From Psococerastis gibbosa (lineage: Eukaryota > Arthropoda > Insecta > Psocodea > Psocidae), in assembly GCA_963971405.1 (NCBI GenBank), contig OZ020489.1, positions 44,284,510 to 44,348,509 of the forward strand: 64,000 bases of DNA, read 5' to 3'. Numbering within the stretch: the first letter of the stretch is position 1; each line of letters starts with the position of its first letter. Under the pieces are notes generated by a model, which was not told where the DNA came from, made no database searches, and worked only from the letters and a program-made list of their open reading frames with translations. This document shows positions 4,236-59,300 of this stretch, piece after piece. The position numbers and the translations under genes are program-made.

Positions 4236-4660
4236 CAGCCCTATTACGGCGATTTGGGATTAACGTAACACTGGGGTTTACTTTTTAATACCGCATTAGT
4301 AAGGTGTCACTTGACGGTGTTAAAATAAACCCCAAGGTGTTAGCAATTGATTCAATAGTTTTAAACAAAAGAGTGCTAAATTGGCGGGAAAGTAAAACTA
4401 ATAAATTATTGGAATACTAGAGGATGGTTGCATTATTTAAATTTGAAGGACTAATAAAAATTAAAATGTACAAGGTAGAAATTTGGAAAATGTTTAAGAA
4501 TTAATGAAGTAATCTAAGGGAGAAAAAAATTGAATACTCACCCAAAATATATTTTATTTATTTATATAATTTATCAATTTGAATTTTCCGCGCATTTAGT
4601 CTAAAACAATTGAATAAACCCCAGTGTTACGTTAATAATTAACGTCATAATAGGGTTGCA
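4236..4660. mobile_element. Foldback/MITE, about 425 bp
   Basis: Terminal inverted repeats of about 45 bp. The left end reads CCCTATTACGGCGA then ATTAACGTAACACTGGGGTT; the right end is the inverse, with AACCCCAGTGTTACGTTAAT then GTCATAATAGGG. The interior is AT-rich and non-coding. The target duplication is not clear, so the superfamily is left open. Confidence 0.55.
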
Positions 4661-28197: not shown

Positions 28198-28430
28198 AAA
28201 GAAAAACTACGATGACGATGACGAAAATGAGGGTTGGGGCTGCGGGACGTGGTGCGAATACCTGTTGGTGGTCGTCCTCGGCTGTCTTCTCCTCGTGGCA
28301 GCTCTCACTCTCGTCCTCTTCTGGATGATCTACTACAAGAACGGCTTCTCGTGGCGGGAGAACCCGGAGAAACAGTTCAACCTCCATCCCGTCCTCATGG
28401 TCGGTGGCTACATTTTCTTCTCTGGATTCT
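28198..28430 (+). CDS. b561 coding exon (helix 1 and start of helix 2)
   Basis: Acceptor TTTTTGCTTCCAG at 28185-28197 and donor GTAAGT at 28431. The exon encodes KKNYDDDDENEGWGCG, a hydrophobic helix (EYLLVVVLGCLLLVAALTLV) and the HPVLM heme block. It begins one base short of a codon and ends with one base of the next. Confidence 0.85.
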
Positions 28431-31400
28431 GTAAGTTCTTCAGGATTGCTTCAACTCTTTCTTTTATACATTCGGTCATAGCTCTATAGACAACTTACGG
28501 ATTATCATACTCAACAATTCACCGTCAGACCAGCGGTCGGCAACCTTTTTCTCCAGTGGGCCAAATTTTTAATTCTGTTCCTTCCTGCGGGCCGCACTTA
28601 TTAAGTACATATAGGTACCTATTACGGAAACTCTAAAAAGTAGGCATTTTCTGTTCTTAAGTAGGCTATATTTTCCAATAATTAATCAAAACCTCAACAA
28701 AAATTCAAAGTAAAAAATCACATTAACATTTAATGCGATTTTTGACTTTCTGTATCATTTGCTATTTCGGGCATGTTGGCCGGGCTTCGTTTGGCTGCAC
28801 GCAATGCGCAAAATATCATCCAAAGAGGTATCTGTGAGGCGGTTACGATACTTGTTCTTGGCATATTTCAACTTAGAAAGTGATGCTTCGCACAGGTATC
28901 TGGAGGAAAACAAAGTTAGTAGGATGAGGGAACAATTCTTAAGATCCCCACGATCTGACGATCTGACGAAGACAGCTTTGGAATCCCAGACGCCCAAGAT
29001 TGACATGGAACTTACCCCAACTTCTTGAAGTATCTAAACTGTCTTTCTCTCCCAACGCTTTGCCTACCTTCTGGTATTTTCCCCATCTAACAGCTTTTAG
29101 AGGCGTGTTTTTAAATCTTTCTTTATCCTGTTGTCGTAATCTCCTATGTTCTACCAGAGTTAAACTTACAACTGAACAAGATCTGTCGCTCATACCATGC
29201 CTATCAATCGATCACCCCCCCCCCCCCCTCTGAACCATTCGATCATTGCCTGATGCTACCCTAAGGGCATGATTGCAGATTCTTCTCCCTTGACGAATTC
29301 TTCTATCTTCGTACACTACTACATCTGTACTGACTTCTTCACTATTGTTGCCGTAACTACGTGCTGAAGCTCAGTTCCACGCAAACAAAGCTGCTCAAAG
29401 CACTACTCATGTCTTTTATCAATCAATTGCAACTCAATGACCCTTAGATTCATCAATCGTACTATTGCCCCCAGGGATGTATGCCTCAGATTCATAGTTC
29501 TTGACGTCTTCCTCTGGTCTTTCAGCCCTACTACTTGCTACACCGAATCAGTCGCTCCTGCCTGCCGCCGTATCTACGTGAAGCTGTTCCAAGCAGTGCC
29601 TAATAATCAATCCTGTCTTTACCTGTCTTTACCCCTTGCGACTCCATCACCAGCAGACCGATCTACCGTACTAATGCCCCCAGGGATATGTCCTGATATC
29701 CTTCTTTCTTGACGTCTTCTTCTTTATTCTTTCAGCACTGTTACTGTACAGAATCTGTCGCTGCTGCCGCCGCATCTACGTGAAGCTATTCCACGCTCTG
29801 CTGCACGCATTCGCCATTCCCTGCGTGATCATGGGGTTCTTGGCGGTGTGGGACTCACGCAATCTCACTGCTCAAAGCCAACAGAGGATCATCCCTCATT
29901 TCTACTCACTGCACAGCTGGCTGGGGATCGTCACAACTGGACTGTTTGTGATGCAGGTATAACTTTCAATGATTTACATCAAACTATATTTTAGATCAAG
30001 CGTAACGGTACAATTAGACCAGATATAGGGTCCATTGGATGTAACAGTCCAGCAGTTGGTGGTAGGCACGCTATGAAATCACCTGCGGAAAAGTTCTTCG
30101 CCGGCTTCTCGTTGCAGCCAGTGCCGGGGTTCATGTTATCATCTAATCATGGTTTTAGTTCTGGGTCCTTCAGGAGCCGTAAGAGCAGTATCAGATGCTG
30201 GCCTTAATGAGCACCATGTCCAAACCAAGCCAAATACTGAAGGGTTAAGCTTCTCCTGTCGTCACTTACCGGATACTGGTTGATCTGACATTACCTACAG
30301 TACACATTCTGGGTGGATTGAAGGCAGCATTCGCAGCTTTGACCACGGGGAAAATGACACCTATCTACGGGTAGCTAGACAGTTTATATTTTCCCTAACT
30401 TGTCAAGGCGACTCTGAACCCTAAACTGGCTATCACCCAGTGGACCCATTCTTTTTCTTCTACGGCACTACAGCTCAGGAGGAAATTTGGCAAATCGCAC
30501 CACCTCTCTGTAGGCGTTCCGGTCTTCCCCTGTCATGGCACCACTGACATCTTTCGCAGGTCCCTTTCCACTTCGTCTCTTCATGCAATCACCTGCCTTC
30601 ACCATTGGACCAATTTAATAGACGAAAATCAAACCGGTAATTGTATTCTCTTTACAGTTCATAGTGGGGCTATTCAGCTTCCTGATCCTGCTGTGCTGTG
30701 AGGGCGCCACAGCGGCGTTCAGGGCCGCTCTGGTCCCCGTTCACTCCACGTTCGGTATCACGACGTTCATGCTGGCCGTGGCCACCTGTCTGACGGGGCT
30801 CACTCAGAAGACCATGTTTGACATGCAAGCGTACGTATCTTACAACAAACCTAATCTACCTGTAATCAGCCACTTAGTCTTTTTTGTAGCGTTATTCTAC
30901 TGGATTATGTATTTTAGAATCGACTGGAATATATCCCGGGACATCGCTCGAAGGCATCAGACGATTAGCCTATTTTATTGTACTACACCGAGTGATTACT
31001 GAGCTCTTGAGTGTTATTTTATATTACTGTTCAGGATTCACTGGCCCTAAAACTTGTTGCAACACCAAATTTACAGCAATGCTCACATTTTCAACGGGGG
31101 ACTAAAACTCATCTCAAACCCCATTGCACACAGTGGATATTGATAACACCACAAAGAATTGTTTGCAACTAAGAATTCTTACGTTCTAGCTTCTTCAGCC
31201 CCAGGAGTTAAAGACTACGGCAATCTTCTTTAATCTGTTGAAACTATTTTTGGGCCTTACTCGCCTGCTTCAGGTTACCTTTATTGCTCCAATTATTTGT
31301 ATGGCTCTTATAATCAGGGGCGTAAAGTTAGGGGGGGGGGCACGGCCCAACTTGCCCCCCCAGCCTCGAGCATTGTAAGGCGTGGTTCAGACTTCATGGT

Positions 31401-34400
31401 CCCCTTTGCAGCAATTTGAATATAAGCATTCCTTTTTTAGCTTTCTAAAATCTACAGCTATAGCCTACTTTACAACTATTAAAATGCGTAAAACCCTACT
31501 ATTTTGCTCTTATATTTTCAATTTTTCCTTAAATCCTGCCTGATGATGTCATAAGGTCTACTTAGTTTTGCCCCCGCCATCATTCTAAAACTTTACGCCT
31601 CTGCTTAAAATACTTTCTTGTCTTATATTGTGATTGACCCACTTCAGCGAGCTGACCATGTGTAATGGAGATAGTGTGAGCTTTGACGTACTTCGTTGTC
31701 TTGTCTATAAGGCCTAAAGAGCCTACTCAGCTTTTATTTCATATTTTTAGCGGATTCTTCAGGATTCAAGGTCCTGAGGCCTTCGTCGTTAACGCACTGG
31801 CTATGACCCTAGCGGCAGCAGGGATCGTCCTCACATACGCAGTCGTCCGAGACCGAATCCGACCTACCGATCACGTGGTCACCCTTAACACCAGCATTTA
31901 GTTCTAACACCCTCAGCAAGAGCTCCCCTGTGTCTACCCTTTCATAACAAAGGCCCCATTGCATTATTGAGTCTGCAAGTATGCATAAAACAAATCGGGG
32001 GAGGGAACTCTTATTAAACATTCTTCCACCTGTATTTCTGATCTCGATGTTTGACATTGCCATAATGGATTTAGCGCTACCGTTGATATCTCATATTTTT
32101 AGTAACAATTTCCAATAGCCTTATTGTTAGTAAAAACAGTATTTTGAAATAAAAATAGTGGCATTGACATCAAATATACGTGTTAATCTGAATAGATTCT
32201 TATACGTGAATGTGAAATGTGTTGGACAAAATATGATGATTGGGACCGATGTCAGTGTCAAAGTTGCTTGGGATTCCTATGTCCTCTCGAAGCAAGATGT
32301 TCAGGAATTGTATATAAAAATTTCGAAACAATAAACAGTCTAATTACTTTTTAAAATCCATCGTTGCGAATTACCATTAAATTTGAAACTTTTTATTGAA
32401 AACTTTTAATGTTCCACTCTGTGGTGACAACTTCGCAACTTTTAAAACAACTATTAACTTCAAAATCTCACTCATCACTCCCTGCCCTTCACCATCCCCA
32501 CCCCCCGCTTTTCGTCATATAACTCGCCTTTTCCAGCCATTCAAGGTGCCATGAATAATGTCCAGTCGGTAGATCGGTTCGGTCCAATTTTCCCAACTTT
32601 TTATTGCGTCAGGTACAAAATTGTTATCTATTGTGCCGTTTAACATACCACGCTTGGGGTGACGGTATGCATAATTATTAATAAACTCGCAAATTGTAAC
32701 AATATAAGCATAAAACATTAATTCGTTGCCAGTCAACTGTAAATGACAGAAAAATCATGAATCTATATACTGACAAATCTGGATATAACAGGCGTTGTAT
32801 TGCATTCTTATAGTTTGGCATTCTCTGAAATACAGCATTAGGTTATTTCTAGTTGGCTATTTGTAAATAGTCAAACCCAAAAATTGTCTGTCGCAGCGTC
32901 GGCATTATATATTGTAGTTCTGTTGATTTCGACACATCGCGTTTGTTGTAAATTATCTGCTGCTGCCAAACTAATCCATAATTGTCATAGTATGTAGCCT
33001 ATTTATTATTTAGTAATTTGTTGCTTACCATAACGCATTTGCTAATTATTTTTAATATAGCCTACACGTGGTGGATGCTGGTGAAGGAATTCGTTTCATG
33101 TTAATAATATTGCTTGTAATAAAAAATAAGCCTATATTATATAGTTTATGAGGATGCACCTATTAAGTTCGATATTATAATGACTATGCGCACTATGTAT
33201 ATTAGTGTCACCGTTGTCAAAATTATAATATAGACCTACTTAGGCTACTTTAATTTAATACACCAGGAATGGAAAGAATCACTATTGGCGTATCCTTTTT
33301 AGATTTAGGGCGACTGTGTGGAAATGTGTACGAAAGTGCGTCAGCCGGGCCATGCCCCTGTGTTCCCTTTTCCATTATCCTATTTGGATGGACATACAAG
33401 CATTTACGATCACTCGATCAAATTTGCAAACTAACTTAACTATTTAAGATTTCCAACTCCCCGCGTTCTCACTAATCAATAGATTTACTTATTTAATTAG
33501 GCCCAGTTCGGCTGCTTCCAGCAATATTTCCCGGCTGTTGCGTGATGAACTTTCTGACGTCAGTGAGGACTTGCTTATTTTGCTCAGTGGCCTACACAAG
33601 CGGTCGAGCGTGTTATTACCGTACATGTACGTTTGAATACAGACTATCCATGAGTGTGGTAGAGCAACCCATGGTCCCCCCCCCCCCATTAACACAAGGC
33701 ACAAAATAAACCCGCACCTGGGTTATATTTATCCTAAACAGTGGAACCACAGCACTCCGACAAACGTTTAGCAGAGTGGCTTCGGACTATCGAAGTTATC
33801 TGGTAGTATAAAGGTCTGCCACAGAGCCCCTATATATAGTCCGGATGTTTTTTTAAAGAAAGAGTAGGCCTAGATACCTTGTAGTTCGACAAATTACGAA
33901 TTAAAGTGAAAGGATTCTGTAAGAAGCATTAATCATAGAGAGGTACCTACCTACTAGACCGCTATGATGTGCAGTCAAATTGAAACTGCGACTACTAGCG
34001 TTGAGCACAGTAGTGGTTACAACCTGTCCAACCATGCATTAAAATAATGAGGATTTGCCGAAATAAATTTTATGCAGAGTGAATGGGGCACGGGTAAACC
34101 GAGGTTCTACTGCATTAGGCCTTCTCTAAATAGGAGAATCGGTATTGAATGGTAACAAAATTTGCTTGCAAAATTTGCTTTGCAAAATTTGCATAGCCTA
34201 CCCTTGGTCTATAATTATATACGAAAAGGTGAATAATGCAATAAATTACCTACACACCAAAATGTATGTAAAAGTGGAGAGACATAAATATTCCAGATAC
34301 CGCAAGGAAAATGTAAACAAATCAATCTCTTGACGGTTCCTCATTGTGATTTATATTTTAAACCTGTCCATTATATTTTCAGAGAATACGAAAACCTGCC

Positions 34401-34536
34401 ACAAGAAGCTATCATCATAAACTCGCTGGCGATGGTCCTGGTCGGTCTGGGCATACTCATCTCCTTCGCTGTCCGTCGCTCTAACCTTCGTGGGCCCTCA
34501 GCGGATGACAACGACTTCGGGACTGATCGTTTATAG
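28198..34536 (+). CDS. Cytochrome b561 family transmembrane ferric/ascorbate reductase (exons 28198-28430, 29736-29956, 30658-30830, then 31763-31901 or 34383-34536)
   Basis: Cytochrome b561 proteins are six-helix diheme proteins that move electrons from cytosolic ascorbate across a membrane to ferric iron or monodehydroascorbate. The joined exons give about 254-259 residues, the usual family length. A cytosolic acidic leader (NYDDDDENEG) precedes the first helix. The family blocks follow in order: FNLHPVLMVGGYIFFSGF, LLLYRICR, LFHALLHAF, HFYSLHSWLGI, LVPVHSTFGI, CLTGLTQK, and a last helix. The heme histidines of HPVLM, HALLH, LHSW and VPVH are all present. Splice sites are GTAAGT, GTATAA and GTACGT donors with pyrimidine-rich AG acceptors, and phases match throughout. 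The first exon enters with one base of a split codon, so a short upstream exon with the start codon is missing. Closest remembered relatives are CYB561/CYB561A3; which paralogue is uncertain. Confidence 0.85.
28532..29006 (-). mobile_element. hAT transposon relic with transposase C-terminus, in b561 intron 1
   Basis: The end at 28532 reads CAGCGGTCGGCAACCTTTTT then TGGGCCAAATTTTT and GCGGGCCGCA, the typical terminus of the hAT group that includes vertebrate Charlie-type elements. On the minus strand SRYLCEASLSKLKYAKNKYR then NRLTDTSLDDILRIACSQTK can be read, the dimerisation domain at the C-terminus of hAT transposases. Upstream coding and the other end are missing or degraded, so it is inactive. 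Confidence 0.75.
29284..29605 (+). pseudogene. Two decayed tandem copies of the 5' part of b561 exon 2
   Basis: 29461-29600 repeats the intron end, acceptor and first 60 or so bases of the true exon (29660-29800): TTGACGTCTTC, a TTTCAG acceptor at 29525, then CGAATCAGTCGCTCCTG and ATCTACGTGAAGCTGTTCC. It is 8 bases longer than the original before ACGTGAAGC, so it would shift frame. A third, older copy is at about 29284-29390 (CTTGACGAATTCTTC, CTACGTGCTGAAGCTCAG, TTCCACGC). The period is about 215 bp. These are host-gene duplicates in decay. Confidence 0.65.
29736..29956 (+). CDS. b561 coding exon (helices 2-4)
   Basis: Acceptor TTATTCTTTCAG, donor GTATAA at 29957. It encodes LLLYRICRCCRRIYVKLFHA, then an IPCVIMGFLAVWD helix and HFYSLHSWLGIVTTGLFVMQ. 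The HALLH and SLHSW histidines lie here. It starts by completing a Ser codon and ends in phase 0. Confidence 0.88.
30460..30600 (-). mobile_element. LINE C-terminal relic in b561 intron 2
   Basis: On the minus strand DEVERDLRKMSVVPW and, in another frame, GAMTGEDRNAYREVVRFAKF can be read, ending in an AGAAGAAAAAG tail. The pattern is the same LINE polymerase tail as at 2685-2815. The frame change shows it is dead. Confidence 0.5.
30658..30830 (+). CDS. b561 coding exon (helices 4-5)
   Basis: Acceptor ATTCTCTTTACAG, donor GTACGT at 30831. It encodes FIVGLFSFLILLCCEGATAA then LVPVHSTFGITTFMLAVATC and LTGLTQKTMFDMQA. The fourth heme His is in PVHS. It ends with two bases (GC) of an Ala codon, which both alternative last exons complete. 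Confidence 0.88.
31315..31603. mobile_element. hAT-type MITE in b561 intron 3
   Basis: Ends CAGGGGCGTAAAGTTAG and the inverse CTAAAACTTTACGCCTCTG. The flanking octamers CTTATAAT (31307-31314) and CTTAAAAT (31604-31611) match at 7 of 8. A G tract and a C tract lie just inside the left end. Non-coding, 289 bp. Confidence 0.75.
31751..31901 (+). CDS. b561 alternative last exon A
   Basis: Two usable acceptors lie 12 bases apart (after ATATTTTTAG at 31750 and after CGGATTCTTCAG at 31762), both in phase with exon 3. From the inner one it encodes IQGPEAFVVNALAM, the last helix (TLAAAGIVLTYAVV) and the tail RDRIRPTDHVVTLNTSI, then a stop. With the outer acceptor GFFR is added, giving a loop close in length to that of exon B. 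An AATAAA lies near 32149. It is about 40-45% identical by eye to exon B across the helix, so the duplication is old. Confidence 0.75.
31902..34382. other. b561 3' UTR of form A, then intron before exon B
   Basis: No other coding exon is recognised. AATAAA-like signals occur near 32149 and 32330. The rest is AT-rich without a known element. Confidence 0.45.
34383..34536 (+). CDS. b561 alternative last exon B
   Basis: Acceptor TTATATTTTCAG, in phase with exon 3. It encodes EYENLPQEAIIINSLAMVLV then GLGILISFAVRRSNLRGPSA and an acidic end DDNDFGTDRL, then a stop. Its loop length matches the family pattern. It lies 2.5 kb beyond exon A, so use of B needs skipping of A and its poly-A signal. A possible poly-A signal is AAATAAAATG near 36168. 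Confidence 0.78.
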
Positions 34537-35789
34537 AAGTGGGCCAACAATCCTTCCCCCAGTGCGGAAGGATTGTTGTCCTCGGAAAAATTTTAAACGA
34601 AAAAACCCCTCACACAAGCGAAATATTGAACGCGGGGAAAATTCAGAATAATATAGACTCGGTAGATAAGTAAGTGATCCAATTTTTCAGTAGTTGGTGT
34701 CCGCGTATACTGCCCTTGTTTTTTACCGCTGCTTTTACTCTATTGTAGATTTACCGTTTCCGGAAGTGTTTACTATTACTAAGAAATTTTTATTTAAAAT
34801 TATTGTAATTTAAATTGAATTACACTGACGTTACAAACAACGTGGGGCTACTTCTTCATGTTAGAGCCCGTTCCCACTTGTAGGCTTTCGGACCCAGATT
34901 TTTATTGGAAGTTCAGAGCATTTTATATGAAGCTATTCGCAGTCGTTATACACTGACTTGTAATATCGGATGTTTTGATTTTGATTTTGACGTCCGGTAA
35001 TAATCGCGTCGATTTTGCTCAACTATGAAGTGTAATAATGCTGTTAACATTTTCCCGAGTTCGGGGTTGATGAGATGAGAGTGTGGAAAATTACCATTTC
35101 AGCTTCAGATGCAGCCAACCAAATAGTGTGAACCGAGGTGCCAACACCCGATTCAAGATCTGGACCTAACAGCCGACAAATGGAACGGGCTTTTTCAGCT
35201 CTACTATAGCATTATCAGTTTTTTTTTAGGTCAGTCTGTAAAAGTTTGATAGGCAAACTGGCTTTTACCATACATAAACTGATAGTTTATTGATGATTGA
35301 TAGTTTTTTTTTAAAATAGGGCAATATCTGTTTGATCTAATAAGCTTAGCTTTTGATGTTGACGTTCTGTACATTGCTGTAGTGTTCAGTAAATGTATAT
35401 AATTGTAGACCACGCTCAATAAGTTTTACATTCACAATGTCCTATTTAAAATCTGAGCTGGTATCGTTCAAATGGAAAAAATTCAAATTAAGTAGGATTT
35501 TAAAGGTAGTATTATTGTACTATATAGATTCATTTAGCATAAAAACTTAAAGTTTCCTGGAAAGAATATCAAAACACTATATGAGAATGTAATTTGCCAT
35601 ATTTGGCTACTCTTAATGCTTAAGTTGGAAGTACAACCAGTGAAAGTATGATATGTACATCTAGAATTTTTCGTCGCTCAACTGAAACTTTCTGTCTTTC
35701 TCTGCAAAATCCGTTATCCAATGAGACATTTGCTACAAAAGTTAACAAGAAAATTCTTTGACAGAGATTAGTGGTAATCTTTTCTTATT

Positions 35790-35960: not shown

Positions 35961-36199
35961 TCTGGAAATATTGCTATGATATTCAATTAACAACCTGCTC
36001 AAGTTAAAGAAATGATTGAAGCTTCCTTAAAATGTCAAAGTAGACTCCCAGAGATTTACCTAATCACTGTCACCTAAAACTGATCCGGAGGATTTCTTGT
36101 TGTATCTTCTCTATTTTTATTAACTTGTTATTCTGTTACGGTATCTATAGCTCATTTTTAAACAAGTAAATAAAATGAGTTTCCCTATGTTGGGTGCCA

Positions 36200-39706: not shown

Positions 39707-42700
39707 GTAAGTAGCCTTCATCTACTATTTGAAACGTATAATAGTAAAAGTTAGGTTGAAATTCTGGGGCGGCTGGCATAAGTATTTCAAACACTGCCGA
39801 CCCTATTAGTAGGATATACTAGATGGAGGTTTCATAAAATTTTAATTTTGTGTTGGGCTACTCACCAATTTAAATAAATGCAGTTTTTTCATGACAAATG
39901 CTGCCACTTCAGCAGCTTGACAGCTTAAAAATTAGCCAATAGTATAAAATAGGGTTGCCAGATTTACAAAACATAAAAACTGGACAGGGAGTCATTGGGC
40001 TATCGCTATTCTATCTAGTGTAAATTTTTCTAAGAAAAAGTGATGTTATCTAGTCTTAAATTTAGTGAATTTTGAGGAACTTTCTATCATAATAGCTATT
40101 ATCAGATTTTTAAAATTGTTTCGTTCTACCCTCTAGATTTTTTTTTTGTGCACTTGAGCCAAAAACATTTATATTTTCCCCGGATGGAGGTGCGAAAAAC
40201 CGGACACCTGGCAACTCTTGCATATAACTTAAAACTCCTAGTTGTTGTAGCTTTTCCCATAAACTCTCCCTAAGCTTTGGTTAGCATGAAGTTAAGTTTA
40301 TTCCACTTTGGTGGGTCTATGCCTTTCATTGCATTGTAATAATTCTGTTGTTTCAGACCGAGGCCTAGGTCTAAACCATCACCAGATAAATGTCCAAAGG
40401 TTTGGGAAAAAAACAGGCGGGAGAAAATGAAAGAGATGTTTGAGGAACTTAGTCGTCTGCTGCCTATGCATGACCCCGCAAAGCCTTCGTCAAGAATAAA
40501 AATAGTGCAAGATGCGCTCTGTTACATAAGGGAGCTTCAAGCCCAGAATGAGGACCTTCTTAATGGTGGATTCGATGAAGTCCATCGTAAGTCATAGAAT
40601 CAGCCGCACGAGTTTACAGCTTACATCTTTAAGCTATTCTCAACTAAGCCAGAATAATTTGCACATTTTTACAGGAGAGCAACTTATAATTGCATCACTT
40701 TGTAGGAAATAGTCAACGACGATAGCCTGCGTTGCATAATATTAAGTAATAGTAAAACCTTTGTTCCTTTAAAGGGGTCGTTACAACCATCCATGGAACA
40801 GTCTAATGATAATGATTCTCTCCATTGCATACTACAATAAGATCCAAGTTAGCGGCAAGTATGATCGCCATCCTCTCGGGTAAATCAGGTTCGAGCCTCC
40901 CTCAGGCTAGAAAATGTTGAACGTTGCTGAAAATAGAATGAAAGGAAGGAAATTGTCTTTATTTTCCATTTTGGCGAATTTTGTGCCAAGCTTCTCAAGC
41001 AGTTCTTGCTAGGGAAAGGCTTGTCTTGTGTTGTAAATATATCACTTTGGGGGAGGGTGGGAAACATTGGCCGCCATCAGTCTTTATAGTCTCCTATCGC
41101 GTGGTCACAACCGCACACCTGTTGTCGCTTTATTTATTTACTTAATTACAGTGTTACCTCAACAAATAAGGCTTAGACTCTTCAACAACTTACTGCGTTC
41201 CTTAAAATATTCCAATATTACTGAATCGAAATTCAGAAATGGGGTGAAAGCATTGCAGGGTGGTGTTCTTACTCCGTGAACGAGTTCATGGAGTGTGAAA
41301 ACTACAATAGGTATACAATTGTATGCTGTTCTAGATTTTTTTGTTTATGATGGTGCAAAACGCTTGTTTTTTTTTTATAACTTAAATGGCTAATGGATAG
41401 TAAATGAAAATGAATGATGGCCTATTATATATTATAATATTGACTATTAGCTATGTAATTCTTTCAGGAAAAAAATTGGAAAGCTGGAAGAGGCGAGTCA
41501 AGGAGCTGTTGAGTCGCGTCGATCAGCTGACTGACATCCTTCGGGCTGCCAATATTCCCGTTCCCCCTCTGGCCCTGGATGGCGTCCCCACATGGACCAA
41601 AACTCAGCCTAAACACTGGACCGACAAGCTTTCTATTCCTGGAGATAAAGTGGAAGAGGTAAGTAATTATATATTAGCCACCAAATACGTTCGGCAACCT
41701 TAAATTTCATCATATTACCTTCAAGTGTTATACAACACATGCAACAAACACCATAAACACGCTCCAATCAGTGCTTGTGTTCAAAAGAGTCCCCGTATAA
41801 TAGAATTAAAAAAGCATGCGTCAACTGGTATCATCAATTATTTAATACAATTATATTAATAACAGTCATCGTCTACATAATCGACTCCTGTTACCTGGGG
41901 GTCTCCAATCCGGATTTCTGACCATTATGGTTCCAGTCCCACTCTTGACATTCTTCAATCCAGTTTCTGTGGCCCTTGCTTGGTCTTCCTCATCTTCGTG
42001 TATCCCCCATCTCTCCTCCCTACCTCTTATTTCCTCAACCATTTTCCAACCGCTTCTTTCCTGATCTTATCCCTTGTAATTAATCTGGTATAATCCGAAA
42101 TTATGCAACTTCTCCATAGTCGTACTTTGCTTTGTCATGCTAACGTGAACTATAAGCAGTGCCATGTGTTCTCCGTATTCTAGGCATTACACCCCTAAAT
42201 TTCCAACGTATTTCAGTATTACTGTATTTTAATCCCTTGTACTATACTTCCAGGTATTGGAGCAAATTGCTGAGGCTAAACGAAGGAGGAAGCAATCGGA
42301 GAGTGCCAAAAATCAATTGAATAAGAGACAAAAGAACGATGGGGACAAAGGAAATACTACCACCAAGGTAAGCAACAGCAGCAAAGAAAATCAGCCTTCG
42401 CCGAAGGCCAACAACGCTACGCAAACAACAAAAAACGAAAAGAAACATGTCAAAGTATCGAAAACTATCGTACCTCCGTGTAAAACAGGTAGTGTTCCAC
42501 CACTTCCGCCTTCTTGTATAGTTACAAGTGCGCCACCCACTGCTAGTCTACTGCAGGGTAGTATTATGACCAGCATACCGCAGGGTAGTATTATGACCCC
42601 CTTACCGCAGCCTAGCACTTTTCTGCTAACTAGTCAAGGTAGTCTCTTGCCAGTTCTCACCCCGAATGCGAATTTGCTTACACCTGTTGTTATAAATAAA

Positions 42701-45700
42701 CCGCCCATGCTCGTCGTTCAGCAACCTACTGTTGCCAAATCTTTACCACTTATCTTAGCTAGGCCGCCACTTAATAAGCGTAGAATTCAGCGTGAATCCA
42801 CCGTAATGACTTTTTCAAATCGATTACCAATTCCAGCGCTTTCGAGTCATTCACATACGCGGCGAAGTGGTAAATGTATAGCTCATAAAACGCAGGGAAA
42901 GGCAGCCGCTGCAATTATTATTAATGCACCAGCTGTTACTTCTTCGCCAGCATGCAAATCTGTTAGTTTAATTAATGAAACGGGCAAAGAAGGGGCAATA
43001 AGTAAGGTAGAAGAAGTTGTCAATGTTGTGGTGCCTACTGAAAACAAAGAAAATAAAGCGGGCGAGGAGAACTTAAAGGAATCAGGAGACGCAACATCAA
43101 TTACTGCATCAAAGACGGCGATATCTGAGGAAGCGCTACCTATACCTTCTTCTGCTGACGCAAATTCGGTAGGAAATAAATTAGAAGACGTATTAATGTC
43201 TAAAAATGACTTGCCAATTGATAAAGATAGTGAGTCAATGCCTCGTGACATCCAGGGCGTTTCAAGGTCATCCCAAAATATATGCTCATTAACTGTATCC
43301 GCAATTGTTGATAAGAATGCGAAAACATCAGATGTTTCAGACGTAACTAATGCAGAACCGATAAATACGAGTACTAGTAGTGTCCACTCGTCCAGTGATA
43401 ATTTAATTGAACGTTCTGTTTCTGACAACATCCATATCGAGCCTAAAAAAATGGAGGGTAATAATAGTGATGCAGATACAGATGCTTTGTTGCAAAGTAA
43501 TCTTCGAGTTTCAAAAGCTCCTTCGCCAAGTTCTTTGACTCACGGGTTGGAGCAATCATCTTCACGAGCAGTAATGAATAAGGTAGAACAGAATCAGTCT
43601 AATTCATCTTCTGAGTCGAGAATATTATCATCGGGTAATATGGTGACAACAGTGCTAAGTAACAATAATCCTATCGAAACTTCCAGCGCTGATTCTATTC
43701 AGCAGACTTCAGCATGCCCACTAATGTCTCATAGAGTTGCAGATCCCAAAGGCACGGCCGTTACCAATGATTCGATTGTTCCAGTTTATCCAAAATCGTT
43801 GTTTTGCCTGGATAACAAAGCATTAGCTATGACACAAGCTACAACTTCTAAGACTTTCGGGCCACCACATCCAGTAGCACAATCTAAATCATTTGTAAAT
43901 TCTGCAACTCTCCCATTTAGTTCTGTTCCTCCGATGTCCCAAAAAGCGTCAGAGAGTTCTCTAAAGCTTGTATTACCAATAATTTCAAGCAACAGCTTAA
44001 TTTCTTCTCCAAAACACACAGGCTATAACCAATGTAATTCGTCCGATGCAATAGTGTCTTCAAATGTTATGAAGTCCGTGGTTCCGTGTTCTAGTAATGC
44101 AACGCAGACCTCCTCTTCTATTACTCCAATGATGCCAAGCCCGTATGCGCCAATAACATCAGCAACTCCGGCTCATTCGTCCACTCAATCAGCAGCTATC
44201 CCTCCAATTCCTTTATTTAGTTCCCAAGGCATCAATGTAGAGTGCCTGACTCCTCAATTACCATTCAATTCAATTATTTCTTCTAGTGCTATAAAATCTA
44301 TTCAGTCGAGCCAGCCGCTGATTTGCCCAACCTCTGCTGGTTTAACTTCTGCTTGCTCACAATCGTTGGCACTTCCAATGCATAATTTTTCTTTTGCTCA
44401 AACATCAGTCAGCTCGAAAGTACCCTGTGATTCACTGACTTTTACAAATCAAGCGCTAAATTTTACCACTACAGCAACTATCCCCATTAATAGTAAAGTA
44501 TCTGCTGCTCATTCATATAACTTTATGAATCCCGAAACTTCAGTTTACTTTAGTACTACATCACCAGCTTGTTCTTCCTCTCAGTCTATAATTTACTCCA
44601 ACATCTCAGAAACAATATCAGCGAATTACCGAACACCCAGTGCGATTCCCCCTCTTAATAGTTCAGATCTGCCAAAATCGTCAATTCCCTCTACTGTCCC
44701 GACATCTCTTTTGTCTCTCAATGGATTGAATGTTACTTATAAAATGACGGAATCTAGTCGTCTTAATTCTCAGACAGGGCTAGGGACAGGACCGACATTT
44801 TCTAATACCCAGACTTTGCCAGACTCCGTGAAGACTACCCGCCATTCTGCGTTTGGAGATCATGCAAGTCCCTCCAGTCAAGCATTATTTAACTATGCAA
44901 ACGCGTATAAAACAGCCCCTACCATTCAATCTTCGACATCGCAAATGATGCACGTTAATCCTACAATTTCTTCCCAGTCATCACAAACATATCAATCCGA
45001 AAACCTTGCTAATACAGACTATAAATCGTACATTGGCAAGATGTCAGTTGCCACAGTTTCTTCCTCTCAACCATTACTTTATCCCAAGGAAACTAATACC
45101 ATAATCGCTACTTCTTCCCAGCCTGGCAATCCTATGCCTGTAACAGGCACTCCACGTAGCATGAAGATACCGGACGATAAATCAAAGATTTTTATCTCGC
45201 CTGCTTATTCAACATCTTTGCACTCTGTAACTATGATACCAAGCGCCTACGATAGTGAGGGCGCCAAGAAAATTGCAAATCCAGCCAATTCTTTACCTCA
45301 CAGTGGAACTTGTTCCATGTTACCAGACATCGTTCCTGTAACAACTCAAGTCCCTACATCATTAGTGGAAAGTCAAAACTCTCCTCCCAAAGGAGATCGT
45401 ATGAAAGAATCTTCAGCTACAGACAGACTGCTAAGCTACGGCTTAAATCATTCTAGTACTCCTTCAAACGAAATGTCCACCTTTGCTAGTAAGGCAAACT
45501 CGACTCCAGACATGTTTCCTAACCCAAGTTTGCCGCATTCGTTTTCTAATCCCGCGTCCAAAAGCATGCCTCCTCCTGCTGTGGACTGTACCAGGCCCAC
45601 AACGCAATTTACAGCAGCATCCTGGTCAAATATGACCCAGAGTGGAACATCTACTTCTGTCCCGACTACGGAAGTTTCTTGGCCTCATATTAGCGCGTTA

Positions 45701-48700
45701 AGAACCCCTAATATTCCCCCAGTTTCTGGGAGTGAAAATTCTTGGCTACTCAAGTCCGTGAACGCTTCGTTCAATGATGGAACTAAATCATTAGCTCCTC
45801 CATTATCAACTACCTCTTCATCTTGGAGACCTAACGAATTATTTTGGGGCTCTGAAAATTGGGTAGTGAATAGTTCTTGCAAAGAATTGGCACCCCCGCT
45901 TCCTAAGAAATCCAAACAGGCAGAGAAAATCAGTGCTGGTGGGACCAAGCCATCTACTGTAGCAAATATTGGAGTACCCAATGACGCCATTCAATGGCCA
46001 ATGAGCTCCTCTTCAGTTGAAATAGCAGGCAGTCATATAGGAATGTACCCCTTCTCATCCAGTAGCGGACTGTATTCTACCCCTTTGTCGTTGCCAGTTT
46101 CTGAAGGAACGTGGGCAGCAAGCGTACCGGTAGCTAAACCGTTTATTCCAGATAGTATTATACCTGTTCCTACAATTAATTCCAATAAATCTAAGTTAAA
46201 TTCGTCTCCCATTTCAACCAAAACACAAGTCAAGGAATCGACTTATTACACTCCCGCAATACCATATTTACCACCGGTTACAAATTACTGCTCTCAGGAG
46301 TTCTCCAAAGATCATTTCTATTCAAATAATTCTACATTTTTTGATCCTCGTGCGGTCTCTGTGCCGTCCTCAAATCAATCTAATTATTCAAAGTCCAATG
46401 CCAAACAGTCAGTGCGTACGTCAGCTTCTAAATCTTTTTCAAGCAATTCCAATCCCGTTTCTGTTATAGCATCTACAAAAAGTGCAGATATTATTAGACA
46501 AACTTCCAGCTCCTCTAAAGACAGATCAAGTTTTATAGGGTCTACATCCACACCAACATATATACTATCCTCCTGTTCCAAAGTGTCTGCCAACGATACG
46601 TTTTATCCGGCATGTCACTATACTGTTGCCGATTCGAATTTATATAATCCCTTCACAGAAAATAGTTACACATCTTCCCTTCTAAAGCAGACATTGCCAG
46701 AAAATCCCCCATATGGTGTTAATTTTTCGAATGCTTATCCTAACGATGGAAATTCCAAGGCATCCTACCATATGAATGTCACCAAATCTTTGCTGAATAA
46801 CTCTCCTTATGCACTGCCTCCTTTTAAAACATCCACGAATGAGAGTTATTACACAGGCGTGCCAACATACTCGAATAGTGCCCCGACTATTACTCCTAGT
46901 GAACAAACTGTGTATGCTAATAGTCTTCCGAAGTCAGTTAGCTCAGAGTTGAGACCAGGTGTTTGCCAATCTTCTTCGTCAACAACGTTAACGTCATTGA
47001 AAGTGCCAGGGAACGAAAAAGCAGTAGTTGAAAAAGGGTTAACTCAAGTTTCGGGTGTCAAAAGTGCCCAGTCAAATTATCCAGTTAAGACACAACTAGC
47101 TACACTTCCAGTTGCCAATTCTGCCTCCGCTGAGGAAAAACTGCATTCTGTACCTTCATCGAAGTGTGGCACGTTGGCATCAGGTTCAGCTGCTGTTAAA
47201 ACCAATATATCTGTGCCACCGTGGAATCCTCAGTACTTAAGTCAAGTCCCACCAATCAGTAATGCTTCGGACAATTCAGGACATTGGGGACAGGCAGATT
47301 ATGGTTTATGTTCGACTGAGAACAAGGACAGTCGATCTAAGCAGCCCATTAACTGGATGACAGAGCCGGAAGCTCGAAGTGATATCATTTGTCAACCAAA
47401 TGATCCTTTCCAGTCTAGGTGTCAGACCACGTTTGATAAAAAGGATTCGCAGAACATTTTTGACTATTGTGTATCCGAAGACGATATCGGAAAGGGCAAA
47501 AGTAGCAAAAAGGATAATGAACCGGCTAGTCAAGATTTCTTCAGTTGGACTCCGGTTAAAGTTGATCCTCTGGTAGTGTCGGGAACACTACCAACGCTTG
47601 TCGGTGATCTCGCGCTGGGAGGTGATCCACTTCCTAGTAAGAGGGGCAAAAGTGCAATATTTCTTCCAGATAGGTATTCCAGTCCGCGTTGCAGTAAAGA
47701 AAACAAGACTATTGTTAATCCTCAAGAGCCCTTCACTAATTTGTCCAAGAATATCTTCGATTTCGCTCAGAGTGACATTCCAAAGTCGTCATCTACAGAG
47801 ACAATAGTTCTTAAAAACATTTTCGAACTGCCTGCGCCACTAGTTGGGAAACAGAAGCCATCTCAAGCGCAAAATTCGTTCTTATCTGTTAGCCAATTAG
47901 TGGATTCACACAATTTGGAGCCCAATGTGGAGAAAAACGAATATTCTTACTATACGCAAAAGCCAGGAAAGGCAAAGCGAAGTAGTGGTTGGAAATGTAA
48001 CGAGAAAAAGTGTCAGCAGACTGCTAAGAATGGCAGCAGCTATTCTGCCGAGGCATTGCTGCGGTCGCAAGACGTAATACCTACCGAGCCTGACTTTAAT
48101 GTTTCCAGTTCTGCTGCGTTTCCCATTGATTTTCCACCTGAAGCTTCACTTATCGACACTTCTGAAGTAACACCTGGGCAGTTGCACAGTAAGCCAAAGT
48201 CGTATAGCCAGAGGATCCGGAAACAAGACTGCTGGAAGGGTCAAGATTTACGGCAAGGCCCAGCAATAAATCTACCGCCCATAACTTCAGTGCAGCAGTA
48301 CCCGGGGAAACCTGTAGATTCGATGTCATTGCCGTTTCCGTATTTACCAGACCCACGGCTATCAGCACCACCTCTACCTCCTTGCGGCGCCCCTATGGCA
48401 TTTCCCCGTTTTCCTACCAACCCTTCAACTGCTCCTTTGCTCGCACCTCCAGGGTTTCAGCAACGAAAACCAGAACCTAGTGGCGTTCATTTCTCGGGCA
48501 TTTTCCCCTCATCTCCTGGACGACCGCCAGGGCAAACTGATGGCTCCTCCTCAAGGTATCCAGGTCCAAAGAAACCTTACAGCTATCCGCGTTCTAACAA
48601 AGCTGTGTTCCCTCCGTTTAGTCCTTCCTTTTCCAGTGACGGGTCTAGAAAGTCCGCCGTTAAAACGCAAACCACTCCTGTGTCTTTTCCAGCTCCTGCT

Positions 48701-48796
48701 CAGCCTGCCGGACCTAGTGGAAGCTCGTTAGCCAATTTTAATCTATCTACAATTTTCCCTGAGATGAATAAGAAGGGAAATTACCCGTATCCTTGA
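39672..48796 (+). CDS. USF3: USF3-like basic helix-loop-helix transcription factor (exons 39672-39706, 40357-40586, 41468-41658, 42254-48796)
   Basis: The four exons join in phase to about 2332 residues, near the roughly 2245 of human USF3. The bHLH spans residues 29-80: basic WEKNRREKMKEMFEELSRLL, loop MHDPAKPSSR, helix 2 VQDALCYIRELQAQNEDLLN, then GGFDE. Human USF3 as I recall it has the same layout ('YITELKRQNDELLLNGG'), followed by a helix and an 'LKAND...TIHW' segment, parallel here to ILRAANIP and TKTQPKHW. The remaining 2180 residues, in one exon, are Ser/Thr/Pro/Asn-rich, with more ordered C-terminal islands such as YSAEALLRSQ and ANFNLSTIFPEM. It is presumably nuclear. The basic region keeps Glu29 and Arg32/33, but Lys30 replaces the usual Arg and the usual E-box His is absent. 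Orthology is inferred; another long bHLH protein is possible. Confidence 0.65.
40357..40586 (+). CDS. USF3: USF3-like exon 2 (bHLH)
   Basis: Acceptor TTCTGTTGTTTCAG, donor GTAAGT at 40587. It encodes PRPRSKPSPDKCPKVWEKNR and the complete helix-loop-helix, ending DLLNGGFDEVH plus one base. Confidence 0.75.
41468..41658 (+). CDS. USF3: USF3-like exon 3 (helix after the bHLH)
   Basis: Acceptor AATTCTTTCAG, donor GTAAGT at 41659. It encodes KLESWKRRVKELLSRVDQLT, a likely coiled-coil continuation of helix 2, then ILRAANIPVPPLALDGVPTW and a GDKVEE end in phase 0. Confidence 0.75.
42254..48796 (+). CDS. USF3: USF3-like exon 4, very long disordered tail
   Basis: Acceptor CTATACTTCCAG, open for 2180 codons to TGA at 48796. 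It begins VLEQIAEAKRRRKQ with a basic stretch that could be a nuclear signal. The body is low-complexity S/T/P/N/Q sequence. Local internal repeats (GSIMTSIPQ, GSIMTPLPQ) occur near 42555-42610. Near the end are ordered islands: NIFDYC/NIFDFA/NIFELP (47455-47830), YSAEALL (about 48045), a Pro-rich PPLPPCGAP block and a YPYP end. An uninterrupted frame of this length in AT-rich DNA is strong evidence of selection. Confidence 0.85.
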   Translation, partial: VLEQIAEAKRRRKQSESAKNQLNKRQKNDGDKGNTTTKVSNSSKENQPSPKANNATQTTKNEKKHVKVSKTIVPPCKTGSVPPLPPSCIVTSAPPTASLLQGSIMTSIPQGSIMTPLPQPSTFLLTSQGSLLPVLTPNANLLTPVVINKPPMLVVQQPTVAKSLPLILARPPLNKRRIQRESTVMTFSNRLPIPALSSHSHTRRSGKCIAHKTQGKAAAAIIINAPAVTSSPACKSVSLINETGKEGAISKVEEVVNVVVPTENKENKAGEENLKESGDATSITASKTAISEEALPIPSSADANSVGNKLEDVLMSKNDLPIDKDSESMPRDIQGVSRSSQNICSLTVSAIVDKNAKTSDVSDVTNAEPINTSTSSVHSSSDNLIERSVSDNIHIEPKKMEGNNSDADTDALLQSNLRVSKAPSPSSLTHGLEQSSSRAVMNKVEQNQSNSSSESRILSSGNMVTTVLSNNNPIETSSADSIQQTSACPLMSHRVADPKGTAVTNDSIVPVYPKSLFCLDNKALAMTQATTSKTFGPPHPVAQSKSFVNSATLPFSSVPPMSQKASESSLKLVLPIISSNSLISSPKHTGYNQCNSSDAIVSSNVMKSVVPCSSNATQTSSSITPMMPSPYAPITSATPAHSSTQSAAIPPIPLFSSQGINVECLTPQLPFNSIISSSAIKSIQSSQPLICPTSAGLTSACSQSLALPMHNFSFAQTSVSSKVPCDSLTFTNQALNFTTTATIPINSKVSAAHSYNFMNPETSVYFSTTSPACSSSQSIIYSNISETISANYRTPSAIPPLNSSDLPKSSIPSTVPTSLLSLNGLNVTYKMTESSRLNSQTGLGTGPTFSNTQTLPDSVKTTRHSAFGDHASPSSQALFNYANAYKTAPTIQSSTSQMMHVNPTISSQSSQTYQSENLANTDYKSYIGKMSVATVSSSQPLLYPKETNTIIATSSQPGNPMPVTGTPRSMKIPDDKSKIFISPAYSTSLHSVTMIPSAYDSEGAKKIANPANSLPHSGTCSMLPDIVPVTTQVPTSLVESQNSPPKGDRMKESSATDRLLSYGLNHSSTPSNEMSTFASKANSTPDMFPNPSLPHSFSNPASKSMPPPAVDCTRPTTQFTAASWSNMTQSGTSTSVPTTEVSWPHISALRTPNIPPVSGSENSWLLKSVNASFNDGTKSLAPPLSTTSSSWRPNELFWGSENWVVNSSCKELAPPLPKKSKQAEKISAGGTKPSTVANIGVPNDAIQWPMSSSSVEIAGSHIGMYPFSSSSGLYSTPLSLPVSEGTWAASVPVAKPFIPDSIIPVPTINSNKSKLNSSPISTKTQVKESTYYTPAIPYLPPVTNYCSQEFSKDHFYSNNSTFFDPRAVSVPSSNQSNYSKSNAKQSVRTSASKSFSSNSNPVSVIASTKSADIIRQTSSSSKDRSSFIGSTSTPTYILSSCSKVSANDTFYPACHYTVADSNLYNPFTENSYTSSLLKQTLPENPPYGVNFSNAYPNDGNSKASYHMNVTKSLLNNSPYALPPFKTSTNESYYTGVPTYSNSAPTITPSEQTVYANSLPKSVSSELRPGVCQSSSSTTLTSLKVPGNEKAVVEKGLTQVSGVKSAQSNYPVKTQLATLPVANSASAEEKLHSVPSSKCGTLASGSAAVKTNISVPPWNPQYLSQVPPISNASDNSGHWGQADYGLCSTENKDSRSKQPINWMTEPEARSDIICQPNDPFQSRCQTTFDKKDSQNIFDYCVSEDDIGKGKSSKKDNEPASQDFFSWTPVKVDPLVVSGTLPTLVGDLALGGDPLPSKRGKSAIFLPDRYSSPRCSKENKTIVNPQEPFTNLSKNIFDFAQSDIPKSSSTETIVLKNIFELPAPLVGKQKPSQAQNSFLSVSQLVDSHNLEPNVEKNEYSYYTQKPGKAKRSSGWKCNEKKCQQTAKNGSSYSAEALLRSQDVIPTEPDFNVSSSAAFPIDFPPEASLIDTSEVTPGQLHSKPKSYSQRIRKQDCWKGQDLRQGPAINLPPITSVQQYPGKPVDSMSLPFPYLPDPRLSAPPLPPCGAPMAFPRFPTNPSTAPLLAPPGFQQRKPEPSGVHFSGIFPSSPGRPPGQTDGSSSRYPGPKKPYSYPRSNKAVFPPFSPSFSSDGSRKSAVKTQTTPVSFPAPAQPAGPSGSSLANFNLSTIFPEMNKKGNYPYP

Positions 48797-56380: not shown

Positions 56381-59300
56381 CTGAAAATTACAAAATTACA
56401 TCATACATTAAATTCAAATTATCTAGAATATCATAATTTGGGTTCACTGAGACTCACGTGACCATTGAAACTTAGAAACCAGTTATTATTATAAGAACTC
56501 ATTCCTTTACAGCTAAAAACTGATTTAATTTTAAAATGGTATTTAGAAATCACTTCATTATTCTAAGATGGGATTTATACCTAAGTAGTTGAATGGATTT
56601 TTTTTCAATAGTACCCATAAAGTTTTTGACTCAAGACAATTAATTCAGTGTTTGTCTACCCATCCGTTGTTAATAATCATTGCAACGAAGAAGACCTTGT
56701 CATGGACAACCACTAAGCGCCGTAGCAAATTTAATTTACGAACCGAATGTGGGGTGGTCTCAAACCGTATGATAAGTTGTGATTAAGCCGTGCTTATTGG
56801 TAATTGAAGACATTGTCTTGTTATAATTAACCTTTCGCAGAGTAAAAATTTTTTCACAACCACAGTTATTTGTTTCTTTCTTGTTAGTCTCTGCATCGAC
56901 CTACATGGGAAGCAAAGTAATACAATTACGATACCTTCGAAACCTCATTACTATGTGATAATGCCATGCTTCTCTCCATATGCTGCTAACATCCAGAAAA
57001 ACATTTCCGCTTAAAACTTTTACTCTTGTTAAACATTTCACAGGCGTCATCATTGTCTAGAAGTCTGTCAGGGCCAACTAATCGCTCCAGGATAAAGCTG
57101 CAGTCCTACGGTACTGATAAATTACCCAATACTCACAACCAACCATGCCGAAAGCGACACTCATCACAGGATAGAAAAACTTCAAGATGACGCTAAAGAC
57201 AAATTCGTGGGCTATCCCCGAGACGAAAAACACGGCTATATTGGCCAGGAATCGGTTGTCAGTGAATTTTCGGACATCCCTGTAGACATGCACGAATAAC
57301 CAGTCTTGAAAGATGGTGTTCCACGTTCTGAAGTACTCGCCATACGTTTTGACTGTCCACCAATCCTGAAAATCGCATGAGACAAAACTCAAAAGAGTAT
57401 TCTAGAGTTTCAAGAGCATGCCAGGAGCTACAGTCTTTCATTCTTTCCTGAAGCATAATTCCCAAAACATGAATGTTGCAAGCCTCCCACCGTAAGGTGG
57501 GAGTAATTTGGGCTGAGTGTTCTGCTCACGGAACATGCTGGGACCAAGCATCCAGGGTCAACTTGGGTTGTGCACAACGGACCCAGATCGTTGATAGATT
57601 ATTCGCATGCTTTCCTTGTAAAACAGCCTATCGGCAAGCCCCAAGAGTACGGCTTGGGCGTTGAAGTAAAATGAGCCGTAGATAATGAGGATGAAGATGA
57701 GTCCACTAGAGGAGGTCAGAAGGGGCGTGGACATGGACTTATGCTTACCTTGTAAAACAGACGATCGGCAAACCCCGTTAGTTCAGCCTGGATATTGAAG
57801 TAACAATGGAAATAGCCGTAGAAGATGAGGATAAAGACAACGCCACTAGGGACAATGGTGGCAATGAAGGATGCCAGCAGGGGCCAAGCGTCCAGCCATA
57901 TGGATCGGAATTGGTAGAAGCCAGGGTGATGCATCCGGGATATGATGAAGGTTGTCATCACTCCACACCAGAGCAACTCCAGACAGTTCGTCACTATAGC
58001 AATACCGCTTCGTTTGTCTGTTCTGAAATACAGACGTAATGGTTATATGCTTCAATGCTACCTCCTCTGCTCCCTTTAGACTAATGAGTTGTGGGGTAGA
58101 TTTGTGCTGATTGCGCGTCTATTCGTTGTGCGATTTGTTCTACTGTGAGTTTCATTTCAAGCTAGAGTCTGGATGGATCTCCACTCTCCAAGAAGAGATA
58201 TTTCGAGCAGCTGCATCCGCTTTCCAGTGTTCCTTCGTGGAACCACCTTATCACCATGATGACATGTTCATCCTTCGCAATACATACTCTCAACAAGAAT
58301 ACTACACCCGGATCACTTCGCGAGAGTCTGGGCGGACATTATTCACGATCACTACATTCACTTACGTACCTGCCCCAAAGCATTGAAAATTCATTGGAGT
58401 GGTTGTCGTTAAGATTACCGGCACGTGTTAACTTACCGGGGATACTCATCGCGGTAGATGCCTGTAGGACAAGCAATGAAATACAAGAAGTGGCCGAAAC
58501 CGGGCATGCCTCCTCTCTGCTGCACGACTCGGCTAATGCAAACCCTCATGCACGAGCAGCCCTTGGTGGCGAATCGGACAAGCTCCATAGCGACGGAAAT
58601 AGTGCAGATGGGGCCGATATCGTATAGGATGGTCAAGAGACTGGGGACGATAAGGAATGAGATGTCCAGCACGACGATTTCAGTGCCGAAGAACAGGTCG
58701 TACAGCCATCTACTCTGGCGCGAAACTGAAAATTGTAAAAGTTTAGTACCGGTTAATTTGGTTATAAAAGGCGATAATCGTGCAGGCAGGTCAGGAAACT
58801 GGAAACAGTCAGCAATAAAATGTCCAGCAGGACGATTTCAGTGCCGAAGAACAGGTTGCACTGTTATTACTACGGGCTGCGACCCTGCATGCATGATGAC
58901 ACAAAGAATTAAGCTAACAAGGGTGCTGATTATGGAACAGGCTAATCAGGAGGAAGATCGTACTGGCTGAGCCCCTTTCGAAAGGGTTGGTCAAGGCACT
59001 GTTGACGGTCAGTAACAAAATTTCCTGCAGGACTAGGATGATTTCAGAGCCAAAATTTGTTCAAACCACTAGGAGCAAAATATCCAGCCGGGCGAATTGT
59101 GCGATTCAAAACTGAGGATGGAAGACATTGAAAACTAGCTACTGTATTCTTCTGTCCTCTGCCCTAAGAAGGAAGTTACACTATTTACGACATTTTCTTC
59201 GAGTTTTTCACCTTGTCGGACTCACGGCCACTGCGATTTACCTTTGTTGCGCTGACTCGCCCAAATACACAATGAAAAGTAACTGGTCAAAACAAAAACG

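What the first reader, a model, noticed from the sequence alone, without database searches (positions are those of the whole stretch)
31751..34536. Cytochrome b561 gene has two alternative last exons encoding different final helices and tails
Both exons have good acceptors, complete the same split Ala codon of exon 3, encode the conserved EA..(I/V)N.LAM..L helix and end in their own stop. The tails differ: basic RDRIRPTDHVV versus Ser/acidic SADDNDFGTDRL. The cytosolic tail of b561 reductases can influence targeting, so a choice between lysosomal and other membranes is conceivable (inference). Form A also has two in-phase acceptors 12 bases apart.
Basis: partly seen in the sequence, partly recalled or inferred. 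Interest (0 to 1): 0.7.

Follow-up and report, generated by a model that had tools for sequence, protein, structure and literature searches.

The report
Nemy gene with two last exons
An insect-type gene for a membrane electron carrier related to a fruit-fly memory gene carries two related but very different final exons, so it can probably make two proteins that differ in the last membrane helix and tail; this is a credible new example of a known kind of gene arrangement, still lacking RNA proof.

Summary
Three shared exons (28198-28430, 29736-29956, 30658-30830) end in a split Ala codon. It is completed in frame by exon A (31751-31901) or exon B (34383-34536), each with an AG acceptor, a sixth transmembrane helix, a cytosolic tail and a stop. 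Exon A is a true homologue: a helix-6 profile built without it finds it at E=3e-5 among 5,680 ORFs, against 0.48 for the best non-relative. A and B share 13 of 35 residues (0 of 20,000 permutations), with codon-position identities 20/21/11 of 35 and saturated dS, the pattern of selection on protein.

The gene does not look like the lysosomal type. It has the double-cysteine cytoplasmic loops of insect Nemy; the EDxxLL lysosomal signal sits in its C13 paralogue (CG1275 type) and in neither A nor B. Two other positions depart from the Nemy norm. The swap changes the luminal loop beside the ascorbate pocket, helix 6 and the tail.

Homologous alternative C-terminal exons are a known kind of event. 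I found none reported for cytochrome b561 in the searches named. Use of both exons in mRNA is untested. A 13-bp hairpin follows exon B's stop.

The parts
28198..28430 (+). coding exon 1 of the part found (TM1 and start of TM2, heme His H1); true first exon(s) with ATG not located
   Evidence: donor TTCT|GTAAGT
29736..29956 (+). coding exon 2 (TM2-TM4, H2 and H3, Cys-rich loop RICRCCRR)
30658..30830 (+). coding exon 3 (TM4-TM5, second double-Cys loop LLCCEG, H4, Phe at H4+25); donor AAGC|GTACGT
   Evidence: H4+25 counted by eye from the sequence
31751..31901 (+). proximal alternative last exon A (luminal loop GFFRIQGP, TM6, tail ...NTSI); second in-phase acceptor at 31763
32148..32335 (+). candidate poly(A) signals AATAAA (32148, 32330) for the exon A form
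   Evidence: consensus match only
34383..34536 (+). distal alternative last exon B (luminal loop EYENLPQ, TM6, tail ...TDRL)
34545..34578 (+). perfect 13-bp hairpin with 8-nt loop, 8 nt after the exon B stop codon; single copy in the genome by the search
36169..36174 (+). first AATAAA downstream of exon B, candidate poly(A) signal
   Evidence: consensus match only
29273..29605 (+). two degraded partial copies of the exon 2 5' region in intron 1 (spacing about 205-210 nt); frame broken by indels; internal control for an unselected duplicate

Best explanation
This is a nemy-type (no extended memory) cytochrome b561 gene of an insect-like animal. Its terminal exon was duplicated long ago. The two copies, A (proximal) and B (distal), are used as alternative last exons, each with its own stop and its own candidate poly(A) signals. 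Exons 1-3 supply the redox core (four heme histidines, cytosolic ascorbate residues) to both forms. The choice swaps the luminal TM5-TM6 loop beside the ascorbate pocket, helix 6, and the cytosolic tail. Shown: anatomy, phase, homology, signature of selection on protein, Nemy-type cysteine loops. Inferred: that both are spliced in vivo, that the choice is made by splicing coupled to poly(A) use (skipping A's acceptor and poly(A) site gives B), and that the forms differ in membrane targeting or luminal partner.
For: Phase and frame agree for both. Held-out profile: exon A E=3.2e-5 of 5,680 ORFs. Codon-position identity 20/21/11 of 35, dN 0.56, dS not computable (saturated). Both TM6 are hydrophobic (mean 2.04 and 2.46). 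The basic residue that in Dcytb (Lys225) contacts the cytosolic heme propionate is Arg in both forms (paper passage; position read by eye for B, and extended by one residue for A). No other copy of exons 1-3 was found on C14 (7 of 7 candidates scored), so B is not visibly the tail of a second gene. AATAAA lies downstream of each (A: 32148, 32330; B: 36169). Exon 2 copies in the same gene have lost their frame.
Against: No transcript, protein or related genome could be examined. The exon 3 donor (C at -1, GTACGT) departs from the consensus (recalled). Exon A's codon score is matched by 275 of 5,617 stop-free non-coding stretches. None of the U-rich matches scanned lies within 600 nt downstream of exon A's AATAAA signals, so the known ELAV bypass route has no clear footprint. 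In Drosophila, nemy isoforms were told apart by isoform-specific forward primers with one common reverse primer, and a preprint shows nemy as a tandem-3'UTR polyadenylation case; neither points to alternative last exons there. Two residues of the core depart from the Nemy norm (H2+22 Arg, H4+21 Gln).
Confidence: 0.74

Rival explanations
1. Only one last exon (probably B, the more canonical) is used today; the other is a relic that was functional for a long time and is now silent.
For: B scores better against human Dcytb (118.6 v 110.4 bits) and against Dcytb helix 6 (11 v 8 of 39 identities). A's codon score is weaker.
Against: A still has an open frame, acceptor, helix, heme-side basic residue and stop after its synonymous sites became saturated relative to B. 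A neutral copy should have lost frame, as the exon 2 copies did.
Confidence: 0.15
2. Tandem gene duplication: one of the last exons belongs to a second, partial or differently started b561 gene.
For: Terminal homologous exons can be remnants of tandem gene copies, a caveat stated in PMC3228551 (passages).
Against: The whole-genome protein search found one copy each of exons 1, 2 and 3 on C14 and none between A and B. Both exons fit the same split codon.
Confidence: 0.06
3. Assembly artefact: two alleles or a foreign fragment placed in series.
For: Only one assembly is available.
Against: A and B share about half their bases (52 of 105), far beyond allelic difference, and both show homology to b561 helix 6.
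Confidence: 0.03
4. Chance open frame with a b561-like look (for exon A).
For: A short exon; the acceptor motif is common.
Against: E=3.2e-5 in a held-out profile search, next non-relative 0.48; 0 of 20,000 permutations reach 13 of 35 identities.
Confidence: 0.02

Closest known systems
Drosophila nemy (CG8776) isoforms
   Same: Same cytochrome b561 group by the double-Cys loops; one gene giving several isoforms with different, non-redundant roles (longest form tied to peptide amidation by PHM, shorter forms to tyramine beta-hydroxylase; PMC4523183, passages and the first part of Results seen).
   Different: The fly isoforms are separated by isoform-specific forward primers with one common reverse primer, so the difference appears to be at the 5' end; a preprint shows a tandem-3'UTR event for nemy (PMC13228862, passages). 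Duplicated last exons are not mentioned in what I saw.
Homologous duplicated C-terminal exons: human CapZ beta, tropomyosins; 77 of 236 human tandem-duplicated exon substitution events swap the C-terminal region (PMC3228551, PMC9741552, passages)
   Same: Two homologous 3' terminal exons giving proteins alike except at the C-terminus; [quoted passage not shown]
   Different: Here the host is a cytochrome b561; the duplicated unit carries a luminal loop and helix 6 of a redox protein; not demonstrated in RNA.
CG1275-type cytochrome b561 (own genome, C13, L005)
   Same: 40% identity over residues 44-152; shares the splice positions in TM4 and before helix 6, with helix 6 in a late exon of its own.
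   Different: Its other splice positions differ (one after TM1, none in TM2). One helix-6 exon only in the 10 kb read; carries EDEMLL; no double Cys.

Membership tests
Cytochrome b561 (PF03188) | Pfam domain over curated cut-off | tested here: met
   125.6 bits v cut-off 23 for both forms, model 1-136 of 137
Cytochrome b561 (PF03188) | four heme-binding histidines | tested here: met
   H63, H97, H137, H180 in the joined protein
Insect Nemy group (Holst et al. 2023, PMC10691727) | Cys-rich cytoplasmic loops, double Cys common in both core loops | tested here: met
   RICRCCRR and LLCCEG; criterion read; the C13 paralogue has no CC
Insect Nemy group (Holst et al. 2023, PMC10691727) | Lys H2-3, Arg H4-7, Phe H3+22 invariant; Val or Thr at H4-3 | tested here: met
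   K, R, F, V; criteria
Insect Nemy group (Holst et al. [quoted passage not shown]
   Arg in the window gene, His in C13; the paper records two exceptions in one passage and 'conserved' in another, so it is usual, not defining
Insect Nemy group (Holst et al. [quoted passage not shown]
   Gln in the window gene, Glu in C13; criterion
Insect Nemy group (Holst et al. 2023, PMC10691727) | placement in the Nemy clade of a tree | not testable with these tools
   no insect b561 sequences were available here
CG1275 / lysosomal b561 | EDxxLL between TM6 and C-terminus | tested here: not met
   absent in A and B, EDEMLL in C13; criterion read
Homologous alternative last exons | homologous, phase-compatible terminal exons each with stop | tested here: met
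Homologous alternative last exons | both present in mature mRNA, one per transcript | not testable with these tools
   no RNA data

The most novel reading that the evidence does not exclude
The exon choice is a functional switch of nemy. Swapping the luminal loop (GFFRIQGP, one positive charge, versus EYENLPQ, two negative), helix 6 and the tail assigns the same redox core to two vesicle populations or luminal monooxygenases (peptide amidation versus octopamine synthesis). This would do by 3' exon duplication what Drosophila does with 5' isoforms. Exon B's tail may be further extended by stop-codon readthrough promoted by the hairpin.
Probability: 0.15. Interest if true: 0.6.

Novelty: new member of a known kind. 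Interest (0 to 1): 0.42.

Why it matters
Nemy isoforms in Drosophila have opposite effects on synapses, but what part of the protein makes the difference is not stated in what I read. A gene in which the isoform difference is confined to one luminal loop, one helix and a short tail, on an unchanged redox core, would make that question directly testable by swapping one exon. It also adds a redox enzyme to the list of genes with homologous alternative C-terminal exons.

Tried and rejected
Lysosomal-targeting reading: not supported for this gene, because the EDxxLL signal is absent in both forms and present in the paralogue. Third copy of the last exon: a profile scan of the whole window and other loci showed nothing between exon A (3.2e-5) and chance level (0.48) beyond A, B and the C13 exon (six loci overlapping the window, L002, L004, L006, L007, L008 and L011, were dropped beforehand). 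Second gene between A and B: no copy of exons 1-3 there. ELAV-type U-rich bypass motif near exon A's poly(A) signals: the TTTTTT, TATTTAT and TTTATTT matches between 30831 and 34383 lie upstream of exon A or at 33000 and beyond. Rfam at gathering thresholds: only a tRNA at 1263-1335 in the window. Species naming: the mitochondrial contig C68 gives an insect-looking COX1 and COX2 (my reading from memory, no test); ARAGORN found no tRNA there with its bacterial code, and I did not go further. Codon-usage test: supportive but weak; trained on 22 of the 30 kinase loci fetched (127 matches), eight left out before the count (six with stops inside, two that I took for tandem copies); overlapping stretches are not independent. 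NCBIfam gave nothing for the b561 protein. Literature: searches returned no paper that I could see describing alternative last exons in a cytochrome b561; this covers listings and the passages opened only.

Full report
What is there. The window (C14:44284510-44348509 of a 409-Mb genome) holds a cytochrome b561 gene on the + strand. Three coding exons were placed by phase: 28198-28430, 29736-29956, 30658-30830 (the first exon with the ATG was not located). Exon 3 ends in the split codon GC|. Two later exons complete it to alanine. Exon A is 31751-31901, with an alternative in-phase acceptor at 31763; exon B is 34383-34536. The joined proteins give the same Pfam hit, PF03188 at 125.6 bits against a cut-off of 23. 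Their best solved relative is human Dcytb, 5zle: A 110.4 bits, B 118.6 bits.

Is exon A real? A profile of helix 6 was built from Dcytb, the Arabidopsis protein, the C13 paralogue and exon B, leaving A out. It was run over 5,680 stop-to-stop ORFs of the window and other loci (six loci overlapping the window were dropped first). The C13 exon and exon B came first by construction, then exon A at E=3.2e-5; the next sequence, not a relative, was at 0.48. A and B share 13 of 35 aligned residues against a permuted mean of 2.75, 0 of 20,000 permutations as high. Identity by codon position is 20, 21 and 11 of 35; dN is 0.56 and dS could not be computed (returned -1, which I take as saturation). This is the pattern of two sequences kept as protein while silent sites were randomised. 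Among the five helix-6 sequences, A and B are each other's closest by count (A-B 13 of 39; Dcytb-B 11 of 39, Dcytb-A 8 of 39, C13-A 9 of 38, C13-B 7 of 38; for comparison C13-Dcytb 14 of 38). That is weak support for a duplication inside this gene. Codon usage is compatible but not decisive: 275 of 5,617 and 55 of 5,280 overlapping stop-free non-coding stretches score as high as A and B.

An internal control. Intron 1 contains two degraded copies of the 5' part of exon 2, spaced about 205-210 bases. The better copy still matches well in DNA but has several small insertions that break the frame. Unselected duplicates in this gene therefore decay; exons A and B, far more diverged, kept frame, motif and stop.

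One gene, not two. A six-frame protein search of the whole genome found one copy each of exons 1, 2 and 3 on C14, one match to exon B and one weak match (E 0.79) over exon A; the only other matches were two stretches of a paralogue on C13 (7 of 7 candidates scored).

Which b561? Holst et al. 2023 (PMC10691727; abstract, sections 12, 19 and 21, and passages) sort insect proteins into CG1275, Nemy, CG8399 and a fourth group. [quoted passage not shown] CG1275 is marked by EDxxLL after TM6. The window protein has CC in both loops and no EDxxLL in either form; the C13 paralogue has EDEMLL and no CC. Position checks agree with Nemy (K H2-3, R H4-7, F H3+22, V H4-3, His at H3-5 as in two Nemy proteins). 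Two positions that are usual in CG1275 and Nemy are not met: H2+22 is Arg instead of His, and H4+21 is Gln instead of Glu. For the H2+22 His the paper gives 'all but two' in one passage and 'conserved' in another. In Dcytb that His is critical for ferric reduction, so this protein is less likely to be a ferric reductase (inference). No tree with insect sequences could be made here.

How it probably works. The redox core is shared. Phe at H4+25, whose Dcytb counterpart touches the luminal ascorbate, lies in exon 3 four residues before the split Ala (counted by eye). The swap therefore begins in the luminal TM5-TM6 loop next to that pocket, continues through helix 6, and ends with the tail (...NTSI or ...TDRL). 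The position of Dcytb Lys225, which contacts the heme propionate (passage), is Arg in both forms (read by eye: for B; one search extended by one residue for A). Exon A has AATAAA at 32148 and 32330, exon B at 36169. The natural reading is coupled splicing and polyadenylation: use of A's acceptor and poly(A) site gives form A, bypass gives form B. [quoted passage not shown] No such run lies within 600 nt downstream of A's AATAAA signals, so the regulator is unknown. The two acceptors of A are unresolved: 31751 gives a gap-free match to Dcytb, while 31763 has the CAG|G form that is commoner in general (recalled).

Known or new. Homologous terminal exons are a known kind. [quoted passage not shown] 77 of 236 human tandem-duplicated exon events swap the C-terminus (PMC9741552, passages). 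Drosophila nemy has isoforms with distinct roles, but its transcripts were separated by forward primers with a common reverse primer (PMC4523183), and a preprint shows nemy as a tandem-3'UTR case (PMC13228862, passages). I found no report of duplicated last exons in a cytochrome b561 in the searches (listings and passages only).

A further feature. Eight bases after exon B's UAG begins a perfect 13-bp stem with an 8-nt loop (34545-34578). The 67-nt stretch from the stop folds at -24.3 kcal/mol, z -4.31, 0 of 200 shuffles as low. It is the second-longest perfect stem of six such sites (stem at least 10, loop 3-12) in the window. Against this, 89 of 9,134 overlapping + strand windows of that size fold as well, five of them over the hairpin itself. 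The genome search found it only here. In-frame reading past the stop gives 19 residues, KWANNPSPSAEGLLSSEKF, then a stop. Stem-loops just after UAG promote readthrough in Drosophila dfr, but 1,012 fly genes also meet that study's stem-loop criteria (PMC13170385, passages). Another study found more TAG stops among fly readthrough candidates that have a predicted structure, which did not hold in Anopheles (PMC5100048, passages). This is a lead only.

Limits. Use of both exons is therefore inferred from sequence. On checking this report against the calls I mended several facts (the paralogue's splice positions, the H4+21 mismatch, the fly 3'UTR result); none of them required a change of the odds.

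Noticed in passing
window 34545-34578: Perfect 13-bp hairpin 8 nt after the exon B stop codon UAG, found only here in the genome; could promote stop readthrough adding a 19-residue tail.
   Followed up: partly
window 29273-29605: Two degraded tandem copies of the 5' part of exon 2 in intron 1, frame broken by small indels.
   Followed up: yes
L005, minus strand, 5206-5211 (donor) and 4201-4261 (possible exon), C13 CG1275-type paralogue: A GTAAGT donor (CCTCA|GTAAGT) overlaps the TAA stop; splicing to TATAG|GACTAGC about 0.9 kb on would replace the stop with tail TSSTAVRETASAAAVDSTL (read by eye). The paralogue may thus also have two C-termini.
   Followed up: no
window 30831-31002: Exon 3 stays open for about 56 codons past its donor and encodes a hydrophobic stretch; intron retention would give a third C-terminus; it is not in the helix-6 profile rows shown.
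   Followed up: no
window gene, H2+22 and H4+21: The metal/ascorbate-site His of Dcytb is Arg here, and the heme-propionate Glu is Gln; both are kept in the C13 paralogue.
   Followed up: partly
G000, e.g. C14:11085363-11086704: Besides the C68 mitochondrial contig, 42 of 43 COX1 matches lie on other contigs, apparently nuclear copies of mitochondrial DNA.
   Followed up: no
window 57081-57401 (-) and 42233-48793 (+): MBOAT acyltransferase exon (PF03062); a 2,187-codon open frame at 42233-48793 has no Pfam match at E 0.01.
   Followed up: no
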